From: Actinacidiphila alni | GTDB lineage: Bacteria > Actinomycetota > Actinomycetes > Streptomycetales > Streptomycetaceae | NCBI RefSeq assembly: GCF_900112845.1 | Contig: NZ_FONG01000003.1 | Location: forward strand, 186,001-250,000 | Direction: 5' to 3' | DNA length: 64,000 nucleotides | Shown here: positions 41,592-64,000 of the stretch, piece after piece | How positions within the stretch are numbered: the stretch's first letter is position 1 | How the letters are laid out: each line of letters begins with the position of its first letter | Program-made: the position numbers and the translations under genes | Notes under the pieces: model-generated | Seen by the model: only the letters and a program-made list of their open reading frames with translations | Told to the model about the DNA's origin: nothing | Database searches by the model: none

Positions 41592-41654
41592 TGCCTCGTC
41601 CGGGGCAGGTACGGCACACGGTCCGGAGGACGGGATCGCTCTCCTGACCGTTCG

Positions 41655-41918
41655 CTACCTTCTCCGCCGGGAGCGCTCCGCGGGTTGCGTGACGACCGAC
41701 AGCCAGGAGATCGCCCCGACGGCGACGGCGATGATCACGAGGGAGCCGAGAGGAAGAGGCCACACGAGTGCGACGACGCCCGCCAGTAGCGCACCGCCGA
41801 GAAGACAGAGGACCAGCATGGCGAGCATCGCCCCGAACTGACGCAGGCGGCGTGCCGAACCGGTGGGAGGCTGTTGCGGTCCCTCGGGCGACGGGGTCCG
41901 TGCGGGGCGTCCGGACAT
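41655..41918 (-). CDS. Small membrane protein under a fluoride riboswitch
   Basis: An 87-residue protein with a Pro/Arg-rich N-terminus and two hydrophobic helices (AMLAMLVLCLLGGALLAGVVALV and LGSLVIIAVAVGAISWL, both near 20 residues), ending in a basic tail RSRRRR. No family recognised. ATG 41918 follows GGTAGGAGAGCC, and the SD is part of the hairpin that follows the aptamer at 41937-41988. The riboswitch makes a fluoride-linked role likely, but the molecular function is unknown. Confidence 0.75.
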   Translation of the reverse strand: MSGRPARTPSPEGPQQPPTGSARRLRQFGAMLAMLVLCLLGGALLAGVVALVWPLPLGSLVIIAVAVGAISWLSVVTQPAERSRRRR

Positions 41919-41921
41919 GGC

Positions 41922-41988
41922 TCTCCTACCTTTGAAGGTAGGGACCGTTGGCGGCCGTCTGCCGCGGATGTCGGCGAGCCCCTCCGCC
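41922..41988 (-). promoter_or_regulatory. Fluoride riboswitch 1 (crcB motif) with SD hairpin
   Basis: Minus strand from 41988: GGCGGAGGGGCTCGCC (P1 stem-loop), CATCCGCGGC, a loop and GCCGC (P3), then CAACGGTCCCTACC ending at 41937. The loop GGGGCU can pair with the 3' GGUCCC to make the aptamer pseudoknot. The same 3' strand can pair instead with the SD region (CTACC with GGTAG, loop TTCAAA). Layout agrees with the published crcB motif. Confidence 0.9.
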
Positions 41989-42092
41989 GCACAACGGCAC
42001 GAGGCTACCGGATCCGGCGTGACAACACCGGCTTTCCGACGTCGACGGGTCATGGTTCGGCCGGATGCGTCATGACCGGTGCGGTCCGTGGG

Positions 42093-42701
42093 TCAGCGAG
42101 CCGCGGGCGTGTTCCACTGAGTGATCACCGGCCGGCCGTGTTCGCGGGTCAGCACGCTGAAGGACCCGACGGACAGTGAGAGCAGGCGGCCGGACTGCGG
42201 AGGCATTCCCAACCAGCGGGCCGACAGGATCCGCAGTATGTGGTCGTCGGCCACCATGGCCACATGACCGTGCTCCAGAAAGCGGCGTGCCCGAGCCAGC
42301 ACGCGATCGGCCCGGGCACCTACGTGGGCGAGACTCTCGCCGGGTGTACGGCCGGGGACGACACCGTCGTCCCAGAGCAGCCAGTCCGGATGGCCGGCGC
42401 GTTCCCTCGTCTCTGCGAGCGTCAGGCCCTCGTAGCCCCCGAAGTCCCATTCGGCGAGGTCGGGGTCGATGCATGTCTCGTGCCATCCGGCCAGCGAGGC
42501 GGTGTCGCGAGCCCGTGCCGGCGGACCCGTGAAGACGCTCAGAAAACGCCAGGCCGACAGCGCACGGCCCAGGGCGAGGGCCTGATTGGTACCGGTCGAG
42601 GTGAGCATCACCTCGCTGACCCCGGTATGGCGACCTGCTCTGCTCCATTGGGTCTCGCCGTGGCGTACGACGACGATGGCACCCACAGCACTGTGCGGCA
42701 A
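42093..42701 (-). CDS. Histidine phosphatase family protein under a fluoride riboswitch
   Basis: A 202-residue phosphoglycerate-mutase-like phosphatase: catalytic motif VVVRHGETQWS (RHG, residue about 14), ARDTASLAG, catalytic acid in AEWDFGGYEGL and second His in VAMVADDHILRIL (the usual HG is DH). Such enzymes act on phospho-sugars or phosphate esters. TTG 42701 is chosen because GGGAGG lies five bases upstream and forms the right arm of the riboswitch hairpin; GTG 42686 is an alternative. Fluoride control fits the idea that glycolytic phosphate esters pile up when enolase is blocked, but that is inference. Confidence 0.85.
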   Translation of the reverse strand: MPHSAVGAIVVVRHGETQWSRAGRHTGVSEVMLTSTGTNQALALGRALSAWRFLSVFTGPPARARDTASLAGWHETCIDPDLAEWDFGGYEGLTLAETRERAGHPDWLLWDDGVVPGRTPGESLAHVGARADRVLARARRFLEHGHVAMVADDHILRILSARWLGMPPQSGRLLSLSVGSFSVLTREHGRPVITQWNTPAAR

Positions 42702-42705
42702 CGCG

Positions 42706-42773
42706 GCCTCCCTACCTTTCGGTAGGGACCGTTGGCGGTTGCTCGTCCGCGGTTGTCGGCGGGCCCCTCCGCC
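42706..42773 (-). promoter_or_regulatory. Fluoride riboswitch 2 (crcB motif) with SD hairpin
   Basis: Minus strand from 42773: GGCGGAGGGGCCCGCC, then GACAACCGCGG (P3 left), CCGC (P3 right) and CAACGGTCCCTACC to 42721. Immediately after, GAAA and GGTAGGGAGG: CCCTACC pairs perfectly with GGTAGGG (7 bp, GNRA loop), enclosing the SD. Closely similar to riboswitch 1, with conserved spacing, so the two may be duplicates. Confidence 0.92.
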
Positions 42774-62280: not shown

Positions 62281-62283
62281 GAG

Positions 62284-62778
62284 ATGAATGTGGCGAAGGC
62301 CCGGTCCCCCATGCTGAACGACGAACCGGTCGATCCCGATATCGACTTGCACATCCCCGCCCAACGGCAGGAAGCCCGGCAGAACCAGCGTCCGGTCATC
62401 GCTGTGGTGGCGGTGGGCGGCGCTGTCGGCGCCTGCGCCCGTTACGGCGCTTCACTCGCCTGGCCCACGCCGCCGTCCGCGTTCCCGTGGACCACGCTGA
62501 CGGTCAACGCGGTCGGCTGCGCCGTCATCGGCGTCTTCATGGTCGTGATCACCGATGTGTGGGCGGCACACCGGTTGGTCCGTCCGTTCTTCGGCACCGG
62601 CGTCCTCGGAGGCTTCACCACCTTCTCCACCTACGCCACCGACATCCGTCGGCTCGTCGACCGGGGCGAAGCGCGAACGGGCCTCGCCTATCTCGTCCTC
62701 ACCCTGGTCGTGGCGATAGCCGCCGTCTGGGCCGCTTCTGTACTGACCCGTCGAATAGTCCAGTGGAGGCAGCGGTGA
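62284..62778 (+). CDS. crcB: Fluoride ion channel CrcB (Fluc), first subunit
   Basis: A 164-residue membrane protein: an N-terminal extension of about 35 residues, then four transmembrane helices. Family motifs: GGAVGACARYGASLAW, FPWTTLTVNAVGC (Asn in the pore helix), and the helix-break motif GVLGGFTTFSTYATD (about residues 107-121; Phe box and sodium site). Fluc channels export F- as antiparallel dimers. ATG 62284 follows GAGTAGGAG. First gene after riboswitch 7. Two crcB genes in tandem suggest a heterodimeric channel. Confidence 0.96.
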   Translation: MNVAKARSPMLNDEPVDPDIDLHIPAQRQEARQNQRPVIAVVAVGGAVGACARYGASLAWPTPPSAFPWTTLTVNAVGCAVIGVFMVVITDVWAAHRLVRPFFGTGVLGGFTTFSTYATDIRRLVDRGEARTGLAYLVLTLVVAIAAVWAASVLTRRIVQWRQR

Positions 62779-63131
62779 AGGCCACCGGTTCCGCTCTGCG
62801 TCTGACCATCCTCATCAACGAAAGCGACACGTGGCACCACAAGCCGCTGTTCCAGGAGATCGTGCACCGGGCACACCAGGCCGGCCTCGCGGGTGCCAGC
62901 GTTTTCCGCGGAATCGAGGGATTCGGCGCGTCGTCGCTGATCCACACCACTCGGCTGCTGTCGTTGAGCGAGGATCTTCCGGTCGAGATCGTGATCGTGG
63001 ACGCCGAGGATCGGATCAGGGCGTTTCTCCGGCAACTGGACGAGCTGCTGGTCGGCGGAATGGTGGTCCTCGACGAATGCCAGGTCACCCGGTATTTCGC
63101 TGACGACGCTCCGCAGGGAGCGGACGGATGA
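62775..63131 (+). CDS. DUF190 protein linked to CrcB, first copy
   Basis: A 118-residue soluble protein of the DUF190 family (PII-like fold): LRLTILINESDTWHHKPLFQEIVHRAHQAGLAGASVFRG, GFGASSLIHTTRLLSLSEDLPVEIVIVD and a C-terminal LLVGGMVVLDECQV. DUF190 genes commonly accompany crcB and are thought to gate or regulate the channel. GTG 62775 overlaps the crcB stop (GTGA), and it overlaps the second crcB by 4 bp. It has a paralogue at 63532. Confidence 0.88.
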   Translation: MKATGSALRLTILINESDTWHHKPLFQEIVHRAHQAGLAGASVFRGIEGFGASSLIHTTRLLSLSEDLPVEIVIVDAEDRIRAFLRQLDELLVGGMVVLDECQVTRYFADDAPQGADG

Positions 63132-63502
63132 ACTGGCTCCTGGTGATCTGCGGCGCGATGGTCGGGGCGCCTTTGCGCTATCTCACCGACCGTACGGTGC
63201 AGACGAAACACGACACCCAGTTCCCCTGGGGCACCTTCACCGTCAACGTGGTCGGAAGCCTCGTTCTGGGCCTGGTCACCGGTGCGGTCGCCGCCGGCGG
63301 AGCCTCGTCCAATATCCAGCTGCTCATCGGCACCGGACTGTGCGGCGCCCTCACCACGTACTCGACCTTCTCGTACGAGACCCTTCGACTGGCTGAGGAC
63401 GGCGCCCGCTTCTACGCCGCTGTGAATGTGGTGGGCAGCGTGGTCGCCGGCCTCGGCGCGGCCTTCACGGGAACGGCCTTCGCCGAAGCCATCTGGACCT
63501 GA
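63128..63502 (+). CDS. crcB: Fluoride ion channel CrcB (Fluc), second subunit
   Basis: A 124-residue membrane protein with four helices and no N-terminal extension: CGAMVGAPLRYLTDRTV, FPWGTFTVNVVGSLVLG and LCGALTTYSTFSYETLRLA (equivalent to the GGFTTFST motif). Shorter and diverged from the first copy; pairs of different-length CrcB genes usually build hetero-channels in actinobacteria. ATG 63128 overlaps the DUF190 stop. Confidence 0.95.
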   Translation: MNWLLVICGAMVGAPLRYLTDRTVQTKHDTQFPWGTFTVNVVGSLVLGLVTGAVAAGGASSNIQLLIGTGLCGALTTYSTFSYETLRLAEDGARFYAAVNVVGSVVAGLGAAFTGTAFAEAIWT

Positions 63503-63531
63503 GCCGGCCCGGCATCCACAAGGAGGTGGAC

Positions 63532-63870
63532 ATGCTGTCCGAGGGAATGGCTTCGCGCCTCACCTTCCACGTATCCGGATCCGCACAGTGGCACCACCGG
63601 CCGGTGTACGCGGAAATCGTGCATCGCGCCCGCCACGCCGGTCTGGCAGGCGCCAGCGTCCTGCACGCCGTGGAGGGCTTCGGCGCCCACCTGCGCGTCC
63701 ACGAGGACCACGTCTCACGTCTGTCCGAACACGGCCCGTGCGTGGTCGTCGTCATCGAGGAGAAGCAGAAGCTGGACGACTTCGTCGCGAGCCTTGCCGA
63801 CATCCTCAGGGTGTGCGGCGTGGCCATCGTGGACACGGTGGAGATCCACGTGCCACGGGCGGAGAGCTGA
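63532..63870 (+). CDS. DUF190 protein linked to CrcB, second copy
   Basis: A 112-residue DUF190 protein: ASRLTFHVSGSAQWHHRPVYAEIVHRARHAGLAGASVLHA, GFGAHLRVHEDHVSRLSEHGPCVVVVIE, then a C-terminal GVAIVDTVEI. ATG 63532 is preceded by AAGGAGGTGGAC, a strong site; GTG 63526 is an alternative. One DUF190 thus follows each crcB, indicating duplication of the whole crcB-DUF190 unit. Confidence 0.88.
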   Translation: MLSEGMASRLTFHVSGSAQWHHRPVYAEIVHRARHAGLAGASVLHAVEGFGAHLRVHEDHVSRLSEHGPCVVVVIEEKQKLDDFVASLADILRVCGVAIVDTVEIHVPRAES

Positions 63871-64000
63871 GTCCAGCGCCCGACACGACCGGGGCCTTTC
63901 TCGGGCCGTTGGCGGCCTTCGGGCTGTTGATGCTCACGCCCGGCCACTACGACACGGTCTTCGTGGCCAGCTTCTGCACCGCCAGGTGGGGCCTGCACAA
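63870..64000 (+). pseudogene. 5'-truncated MFS transporter fragment at window edge
   Basis: In the frame of 63882 the sequence reads DTTGAFLGPLAAFGLLMLTPGHYDTVFVASF, a mid-protein segment of small MFS transporters (compare EAMDQVGALIGPL of the MFS at 38957). The N-terminal half of the transporter is absent: it joins directly behind the DUF190 stop with no start codon or ribosome-binding site in a fitting place. Most likely a remnant left by recombination at this edge of the fluoride island. It continues beyond the window. Confidence 0.6.

What the first reader, a model, noticed from the sequence alone, without database searches (positions are those of the whole stretch)
41637..64000. A fluoride island with seven fluoride riboswitches in 21 kb
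Seven crcB-motif aptamers (41937-41988, 42721-42773, 51621-51673, 54847-54913, 55071-55118, 59461-59510, 62175-62233) on both strands control at least seven transcription units. Each shows P1, P3 and the complementary pseudoknot strands. The target list joins transport (CrcB, DUF190), target replacement (enolase, pyrophosphatase), repair-like ATPases, a membrane energy complex and a MoxR chaperone operon. Single fluoride riboswitches are widely known; I know of no described cluster this dense, though I cannot check the literature or databases here.
Basis: partly seen in the sequence, partly recalled or inferred. Interest (0 to 1): 0.95.

Follow-up and report, generated by a model that had tools for sequence, protein, structure and literature searches.

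The report
Seven-riboswitch fluoride island, paired-base aptamer variant
A bacterial genome packs seven sequences matching the fluoride-sensing RNA switch into 20 kb, likely turning on fluoride export, spare fluoride-sensitive enzymes and other defence genes together, and four of them share a matched two-base change at the RNA core, three of which the public detection model misses.

Summary
Rfam's fluoride model (RF01734) puts 1 of 7 copies over its cut-off, 3 below it, and misses 3. A covariance model built only from other genomes' aptamers finds exactly these 7 (42.9-64.6 bits; next match 10.0). They span 20.3 kb; an eighth lies before a second crcB pair on another contig. Related islands can be denser: 16 in 40.2 kb in Streptacidiphilus sp. 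4-A2. Four of the seven carry G6-C38 where the solved aptamer has the reversed Watson-Crick pair A6-U38. Across 104 distinct aptamers the pair is A-U in 69, G-C in 28, A-C in 3, C-C in 2, gapped in 2, never G-U. Of 21 fetched G-C copies in relatives, 17 have crcB close downstream; Rfam passes none of 18 such loci. The pseudoknot's 3' strand can also pair with the downstream ribosome-binding site, suggesting fluoride-ON translational switches. Known before: links of the motif to mutS, formate hydrogenlyase, enolase and pyrophosphatase genes; an island with one riboswitch; a genome with at least 10. New as far as searched: the dense islands and the G-C form. Fluoride binding is untested.

The parts
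41934..41993 (-). fluoride-type aptamer R1, G6-C38 form
   Evidence: R2 60.5 bits; not matched by RF01734 at E<=10; type GC
41655..41918 (-). 87-aa small membrane-like protein, 16 nt after R1; ribosome-binding site in hairpin CCUACCUU/AAGGUAGG
   Evidence: no Pfam for the longer frame; homologues behind G-C aptamers in L022/L054/L070 (one genome), L048 and L049
42718..42778 (-). fluoride-type aptamer R2, G6-C38 form
   Evidence: R2 57.0 bits; not matched by RF01734
42093..42701 (-). histidine phosphatase (phosphoglycerate mutase/acid phosphatase superfamily), TTG start
   Evidence: PF00300 5.4e-41; NCBIfam matches all below their cut-offs
43598..44047 (-). UspA-like universal stress protein, after the Hyf-like genes
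   Evidence: PF00582 1.6e-14
44092..51570 (-). Hyf-like operon: NuoH-like (50608-51570), HyfE-like (49925-50608), HyfF-like (48452-49918), NuoC/D-like (46935-48455), NuoB-like with ferredoxin-type cysteines (46149-46934), HyfB-like (44092-46152)
   Evidence: NCBIfam matches below their cut-offs; no CxxC in the large subunit nor in 9 homologue rows from 8 genomes, one row partial
51618..51677 (-). fluoride aptamer R3, canonical A6-U38
   Evidence: RF01734 49.1 bits over cut-off; R2 64.6
51764..54819 (-). MutS-domain-V ATPase pair: 53281-54819 and 51764-53284
   Evidence: PF00488 in both; Walker A motifs; both present in 24 of 24 loci found with the first one
54843..54918 (-). fluoride-type aptamer R4, G6-C38, with an extra insert between P1 and P3
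   Evidence: RF01734 33.1; R2 42.9
55067..55122 (+). fluoride-type aptamer R5, A6-U38; divergent from R4, 149 nt apart
   Evidence: RF01734 26.6; R2 46.6; spacing
55146..58892 (+). operon DUF4129 (frame open from 55128; start perhaps GTG 55146), 56102-56593 unknown, MoxR ATPase 56590-57594, DUF58 57591-58892
59456..59514 (+). fluoride-type aptamer R6, A6-U38
   Evidence: RF01734 33.6; R2 63.3
59535..62058 (+). 59535-60068 unknown; inorganic pyrophosphatase 60065-60751 (start may be GTG 60263); enolase 60793-62058
   Evidence: PF00719 and PF00113/PF03952; one further pyrophosphatase and two further enolases elsewhere in the genome
62172..62236 (+). fluoride-type aptamer R7, G6-C38
   Evidence: R2 52.4; not matched by RF01734
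62284..63502 (+). fluoride exporter operon CrcB (62284-62778), DUF190 (62775-63131), CrcB (63128-63502)
   Evidence: PF02537 and PF02641

Best explanation
The region holds seven crcB-motif aptamers, three with A6-U38 and four with G6-C38, and is likely a fluoride-resistance island in which each aptamer would switch on its own operon when fluoride rises. Predicted mechanism: without fluoride the 3' strand of the aptamer pseudoknot (GGYYYCU and the bases after it) pairs with the downstream ribosome-binding site and blocks translation; a magnesium-fluoride cluster locks the pseudoknot and the A40-U48 linchpin, freeing that site. The products would export fluoride (CrcB), supply second copies of fluoride-sensitive phosphoryl-transfer enzymes (enolase, pyrophosphatase), and add NTP-driven machines (MutS-like pair, MoxR) and a membrane ion-pump-like complex. 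Shown: the aptamers, their pairs, the genes and the possible pairing with the ribosome-binding site. Inferred: fluoride binding by the G-C form, the ON direction, and the roles of the non-CrcB genes.
For: R2, trained without the window, finds exactly these seven in 64 kb. P1, P3, pseudoknot and 6-38 are standard pairs in 99.0% of 616 cells on A3, above all 500 shuffles; slid versions give 40-59%. Linchpin A40-U48 kept in 103 of 104 distinct aptamers. In the 60 of those 104 that were not in the training set, 6-38 is A-U 41, G-C 12, A-C 3, C-C 2, gapped 2, G-U 0. Of 30 loci fetched around the best matches of a family survey, 21 are G-C and 17 of those have a crcB homologue within 900 nt; 0 of the 9 A-U ones do; 16 of the 17 aptamers were not in the training set. 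The own-genome eighth copy is G-C and 50 nt before a CrcB homologue. Ribosome-site pairing: over 131 distinct aptamers the pseudoknot 3' segment binds its own downstream 120 nt at a mean -15.8 kcal/mol against -13.56 (sd 0.20) with partners swapped, beyond all 2000 permutations; minimum-energy folds pair it to the ribosome-binding site in R1, R2, R3, R6, R7 and, by four pairs, R4. None of the 6 terminator-like sites found in 41600-63600 lies between an aptamer and its gene. A one-riboswitch island with ppaC, eno and crcB is fluoride-induced in E. cloacae FRM (PMC5533749, passages).
Against: No ligand or expression data. Three of seven copies are invisible to Rfam. The G-C form usually has C41 (24 of 28); U41A abolishes switching in B. 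cereus (PMC11077080, passages), so affinity may differ. Exceptions to 6-38 pairing: A-C 3, C-C 2 and 2 gapped of 104. The 28 G-C aptamers are related, so they may stand for few evolutionary events; this was not resolved on a tree. Against shuffled downstream sequence the ribosome-site pairing is weak: 31% of 131 beat 95 of 100 shuffles, median z -1.13. In the swap test R3 and R7 stand out (fraction of swapped partners pairing at least as well 0.00 and 0.06), R5 and R6 are middling (0.34, 0.29), and R1, R2, R4 do not (0.65, 0.95, 0.82); R1's and R2's hairpin partner lies partly or largely in the first bases that this test skips. R5's minimum-energy fold does not show the pairing.
Confidence: 0.82

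Rival explanations
1. The G6-C38 RNAs have drifted to another ligand or a much lower affinity and no longer report fluoride in the same range; only R3, R5 and R6 are true fluoride switches.
For: Rfam misses three of the four; 24 of 28 G-C forms also have C41, and U41A is inactive in B. cereus (PMC11077080, passages).
Against: G-C forms sit before crcB at two places in the own genome and in 17 of 30 fetched relative loci; linchpin and pseudoknot kept.
Confidence: 0.12
2. The switches act on transcription (terminators), not translation.
For: The best-studied fluoride switch (B. cereus) works by antitermination (PMC10687018, passages).
Against: In the folds the pairing partner is the ribosome-binding site in R1, R2, R3, R6, R7 and partly R4, and the pairing is specific on average; no terminator-like site was found in the seven leaders, though that scan is simple and high-GC terminators may lack a T run.
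Confidence: 0.18
3. The cluster is incidental: genes with their own switches were gathered by gene transfer and are not a coordinated response.
For: Gene content and the gene behind a given aptamer differ between islands; a nearly identical aptamer sits before mutS in L037 and before the Hyf-like operon here.
Against: Overlapping gene sets recur in unrelated phyla and on plasmids; the MutS-like genes are both present in 24 of 24 loci.
Confidence: 0.08

Closest known systems
Fluoride riboswitch, Rfam RF01734 (crcB motif)
   Same: P1, P3, pseudoknot, linchpin A40-U48, position before crcB/eno/ppa/mutS/Hyf-like genes
   Different: Four of seven have G6-C38 in place of A6-U38; most of that form in relatives also have C41; three of seven get no RF01734 match
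Enterobacter cloacae FRM genomic island GI3 (PMC5533749, passages)
   Same: Island with crcB, eno, pyrophosphatase, phosphoglycerate mutase, UspA; fluoride-induced
   Different: One riboswitch before a six-gene operon; no MutS pair, Hyf-like complex or MoxR among those six genes
Methylobacterium extorquens DM4 (at least 10 fluoride riboswitches, stated in a passage of PMC6785547 citing earlier work)
   Same: Many fluoride riboswitches in one genome
   Different: Clustering is not stated in the passage seen; not compared here
crcB-motif gene associations (Weinberg 2010, PMC2864571, passages)
   Same: mutS and formate hydrogenlyase genes already listed as downstream genes
   Different: Here the hydrogenlyase-like operon lacks CxxC motifs in its large subunit, so the name is misleading for these islands
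Levitt pair of tRNA (reverse Watson-Crick G:C; PMC3902895, abstract and passages)
   Same: Reverse Watson-Crick pair joining distant elements; its position 15-48 and the A-U/G-C exchange there are recalled
   Different: The geometry of G6-C38 in the fluoride aptamer is not known

Membership tests
RF01734 fluoride riboswitch | Score over Rfam gathering cut-off | tested here: not met
   1 of 7 over 34 bits, 3 of 7 at 26.6-33.6, 3 of 7 unmatched; met for R3 alone
RF01734 fluoride riboswitch | P1, P3 and pseudoknot | tested here: met
   Pairs counted on A1, which holds five of the seven (100% of 560 cells); R4 and R5 by model match only
RF01734 fluoride riboswitch | Linchpin A40-U48 | tested here: met
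   103 of 104 related aptamers; both columns invariant in A1, which holds five of seven window copies; R4 and R5 read by eye
RF01734 fluoride riboswitch | Reversed Watson-Crick A6-U38 | tested here: inconclusive
   A-U in R3, R5, R6; G-C in R1, R2, R4, R7; geometry not testable here
RF01734 fluoride riboswitch | Before fluoride-related genes | tested here: met
   CrcB, enolase/pyrophosphatase, MutS-like, Hyf-like
RF01734 fluoride riboswitch | Binds fluoride with Mg2+ | not testable with these tools
   needs in-line probing or ITC
Group 4 (Hyf/FHL) hydrogenase | NiFe-binding CxxC motifs of the large subunit (recalled definition) | tested here: not met
   No CxxC in the window protein or in 9 homologue rows from 8 genomes
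MutS mismatch repair protein | Mismatch-recognition, connector and core domains | tested here: not met
   Only domain V matched in Pfam at E<=1e-3; NCBIfam and PDB matches cover the C-terminal part only

The most novel reading that the evidence does not exclude
Fluoride aptamers come in two interchangeable core forms, A6-U38 and a Levitt-like G6-C38, with different fluoride thresholds; islands of 7 to 16 separate switches mix both forms into a graded, RNA-only regulon that reads one ion many times and turns on export first and spare phosphoryl-transfer enzymes later.
Probability: 0.25. Interest if true: 0.82.

Novelty: new variant of a known kind. Interest (0 to 1): 0.62.

Why it matters
It suggests that the public fluoride-riboswitch model misses a common form: in the 35-species genus, RF01734 finds 7 genomes (E<=1e-3) where R2 finds 27 (E<=1e-6). 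It offers a natural double change at a tertiary pair of the aptamer, so the role of A6-U38 becomes directly testable. The islands list the genes that bacteria tie to fluoride: pyrophosphatases, NUDIX hydrolases, ABC-F-like and dynamin-like NTPases, MutS-like and MoxR ATPases, enolase. That set fits poisoning of phosphoryl-transfer enzymes by metal fluorides (inference). It also questions the label 'formate hydrogenlyase' for one classic target.

Tried and rejected
Organofluorine biosynthesis as the reason for the island: no SAM_HAT_N (fluorinase family) match in the own genome, so dropped. COG2908 RNA at 42705-42737(+) (18.6 bits, E 1.4): overlaps the hairpin behind aptamer R2 on the other strand; taken as chance. 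Dinucleotide-shuffle test of ribosome-site pairing came out weak; the partner-swap test was then made, and both are reported. MAFFT misplaced one long-insert aptamer (L022:6901), so it was left out of A3 and R2. The pattern scan allowed all letters at 6 and 38; with P1, pseudoknot and P3 required it gave A-U 34, G-C 21, A-C 2, and it dropped three C..C mutS-type aptamers whose pseudoknot score fell below the limit. A1 was restricted to A-U/G-C/A-C rows of length <=56, so its 21:19 count is not an independent test. The Fisher p-value ignores relatedness and is not used. Literature: the listings showed no paper on dense islands or on G6-C38, in an open-licence library only; the founding papers (Baker 2012, Ren 2012) and Walker 2012 are not held. 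PMC9320726 was searched for riboswitch, fluoride and crcB and holds none.
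Full report
Observation. Rfam release 15 gives one match over its cut-off in the window, the fluoride riboswitch at 51616-51681(-), 49.1 bits. With the cut-off off, three more claimed copies appear at 33.6, 33.1 and 26.6 bits, and three of the seven do not appear at all. The whole genome (8.27 Mb, 49 contigs; window = C20:186001-250000) has no other convincing RF01734 match; the next has 15.3 bits.

An independent model. I took aptamers from related loci, aligned 44 that do not come from the window (A3) and built covariance model R2 with P1 and P3 only. 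R2 finds in the window exactly the seven claimed copies, 42.9 to 64.6 bits; the eighth best match has 10.0 bits. In the whole genome it adds one copy, C2:70862-70926, 50.7 bits, 50 nt before a second CrcB pair; the next match has 25.3 bits. So 7 of 8 copies lie in 20.3 kb. The training sequences came from loci chosen for a MutS-like relative and from genus members with a Rfam match, so they are relatives of the island, not a random sample.

Structure. On A3, P1, P3, the pseudoknot and pair 6-38 form standard pairs in 99.0% of 616 cells; no shuffle of 500 reaches this, and sliding one strand by one to three columns gives 40-59%. A6-U38 is a reversed Watson-Crick pair and A40-U48 the linchpin in the solved aptamer (PMC11586693 and PMC10687018, passages). 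Among 104 distinct aptamers from 132 matches in 45 loci (one of them R7 itself, through L013), A40-U48 is kept in 103. Position 6-38 is A-U in 69, G-C in 28, A-C in 3, C-C in 2 and gapped in 2; G-U never occurs. Leaving out the 44 in the training set, the 60 others are A-U 41, G-C 12, A-C 3, C-C 2, gapped 2. In the window R1, R2, R4 and R7 are G-C and R3, R5 and R6 are A-U. The G-C form mostly carries A39 and C41 (24 of 28) and often A7 (18 of 28). Because U41A kills the B. cereus switch (PMC11077080, passages), a changed affinity is possible. A free reverse Watson-Crick G:C pair is described as rather unstable without help such as a divalent ion (PMC3902895, abstract and passages); whether G6-C38 takes that geometry is unknown. 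How many times the change arose was not resolved.

The G-C form is tied to the fluoride exporter. R2 was run over 394 genomes of the family at E<=1e-6; 164 have a match. The family is Streptomycetaceae by inference: some of its handles show the same contig positions as named Streptomyces and Streptacidiphilus records. Thirty loci around the best-scoring matches were fetched: 21 are G-C, and 17 of these 21 have a CrcB homologue within 900 nt downstream (first CrcB 40-332 nt); none of the 9 A-U ones has. One of the 30 is the window's own R3 (L072) and several others come from island genomes; 16 of the 17 crcB-linked aptamers were not in R2's training set. Rfam over 18 crcB-linked G-C loci (the 17 and the own eighth copy) passes none; five show 19.8-23.4 bits. 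In the 35-species genus RF01734 finds 7 genomes at E<=1e-3 (3 over its cut-off), R2 27 at E<=1e-6, the own genome counted in both; the form of each of those 27 was not read.

Islands. Clusters counted with R2 at E<=0.001 in fetched stretches, weak matches down to about 20 bits included: Streptacidiphilus sp. 4-A2, 16 in 40.2 kb (all 38.9 bits or more); Streptantibioticus parmotrematis, 10 in 13.7 kb (three of them 27.6-29.6 bits), 7 in 19.0 kb and 3 in 1.0 kb on three contigs; Streptomyces pyxinicus, 9 in 14.7 kb; a Streptosporangiaceae MAG (L040), 7 in 10.8 kb; the window, 7 in 20.3 kb. Of 111 copies counted, 16 divergent neighbour pairs lie within 350 nt, none convergent, one tandem. Such genomes are rare: 9 of 394 family genomes have five or more matches (at most 14 candidates were scored per genome with stricter filters, so 14 is a ceiling, and the own genome shows 7 of its 8). 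In a phylum sample 83 of 396 genomes have a RF01734 match at E<=1e-4 and 4 of 396 have four or more.

Genes. Downstream of the window's switches lie a small membrane-like protein, a histidine phosphatase, a Hyf-like operon with a UspA gene, two MutS-domain-V ATPases, a DUF4129-MoxR-DUF58 operon, pyrophosphatase and enolase, and CrcB-DUF190-CrcB. The genome has two further enolases (about 53% identical) and one further pyrophosphatase (71%), so the island copies are extra. I scanned with Pfam the first frames behind switches in three other islands, 29 of the 46 picked. They include pyrophosphatases, NUDIX hydrolases, ABC-F-like proteins, a dynamin-like GTPase, histidine phosphatases, DUF4129, NuoH-like and CrcB; several had no Pfam match or may be wrong frames. 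The MutS-like proteins show no other MutS domain in Pfam, and both occur in 24 of 24 loci. The Hyf-like large subunit has no CxxC motif, nor have 9 homologue rows from 8 genomes (two rows are the same S. pyxinicus gene, one is a 299-residue part; 16 loci were tried, the rest lacked the gene or gave too short a piece); the NuoB-like part of the window protein has one cysteine. It is therefore very unlikely to be a hydrogenase and more likely an ion-moving complex (inference).

Mechanism. In the leaders the pseudoknot 3' strand runs into a stretch complementary to the ribosome-binding site. Minimum-energy folds pair it in R1, R2, R3, R6 and R7, by four pairs in R4, and not in R5, where GGUCCC can pair with GGGGACC before GTG 55146. 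The folds themselves are 0.8 to 2.8 standard deviations below shuffles. Over 131 distinct aptamers (those with a recognisable 3' end and enough downstream sequence), the 3' segment pairs with its own downstream stretch at a mean of -15.8 kcal/mol, against -13.56 (sd 0.20) when partners are swapped, lower than any of 2000 permutations. In the window only R3 and R7 stand out singly in that test; R5 and R6 are middling, and R1, R2 and R4 do not stand out. Against shuffled downstream sequence 31% of 131 stand out at 5 in 100. A simple terminator scan of 41600-63600 finds 6 sites, about the number in shuffles, none between an aptamer and its gene. A fluoride-ON translational switch is thus the likely design, with individual cases unproved.

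Spread. The MutS-like gene has relatives in Caballeronia, Mesorhizobium, Arthrobacter, Bacillota and Chloroflexi records and on 46 plasmid records, 21 of them typed as conjugative (20 listed, 3 opened). A Rhodococcus plasmid island with eno, two crcB, phosphatases and UspA lies next to Tn7-like transposition genes and has four R2 matches, 28.3-46.4 bits. A Rubrobacter plasmid has two at 51.7 and 34.6 bits. A conjugative Klebsiella plasmid carries two MutS genes beside crcB, eno, phosphoglycerate mutase and pyrophosphatase genes, with only weak R2 matches, 23.5 and 15.6 bits.

Known and new. Weinberg 2010 lists mutS and formate hydrogenlyase behind crcB motifs (PMC2864571, passages). E. cloacae FRM has a fluoride island with one riboswitch and a six-gene operon (PMC5533749, passages). 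A review lists enolase, pyrophosphatase, antiporters and formate hydrogenlyase as riboswitch targets and speaks of extensive riboswitch use in S. cattleya and Methylobacterium DM4 (PMC11139923, passages). PMC6785547 (passage) says DM4 has at least 10 fluoride riboswitches. Many switches per genome is thus known. Dense islands and the G6-C38 form did not show in the listings, in an open-licence library that lacks the founding papers.

Source. Contig NZ_JAATEJ010000024.1 of Actinacidiphila epipremni (L037) has the same length as contig C19 of G005 (159,691 bases), a same-genus genome, so the window is probably from an Actinacidiphila species (inference).

Noticed in passing
window 54843-55122; L022, L025, L027, L030/L046, L040, L042, L048, L049, L051/L052, L053, L058, L061: Head-to-head pairs of fluoride aptamers, 55-237 nt apart, flank what must be divergent promoters: 16 pairs among 111 copies, no convergent pair.
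   Followed up: partly
G000:C2:70862-71862: Eighth aptamer of the genome, G6-C38, before a second crcB pair; no Rfam match.
   Followed up: yes
window 44092-51570: Hyf/complex I-like operon without CxxC motifs in the large subunit and with one cysteine in the NuoB-like part; the label formate hydrogenlyase looks wrong for it.
   Followed up: partly
L101 (Rhodococcus plasmid), L102 (Klebsiella plasmid), L103 (Rubrobacter plasmid): Plasmid-borne MutS-like genes with fluoride-type aptamers (four in L101, two in L103, two weak ones in L102); L101 lies beside Tn7-like genes.
   Followed up: partly
window 42903-43490: ChrB N-terminal domain protein (chromate-resistance family, recalled) between switch-controlled genes, with no aptamer of its own.
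   Followed up: no
L037 9669-9728 and window 51618-51677: Nearly the same aptamer sits before mutS in A. epipremni and before the Hyf-like operon here, as if switches move between genes.
   Followed up: no
L022 17403, L030 7760, L051 11327, L053 8031: Aptamers with C at both 6 and 38 and long inserts; the 6-38 pair is absent.
   Followed up: no
L082 1-60: SAM-IV riboswitch cut by the locus end (53.1 bits).
   Followed up: no
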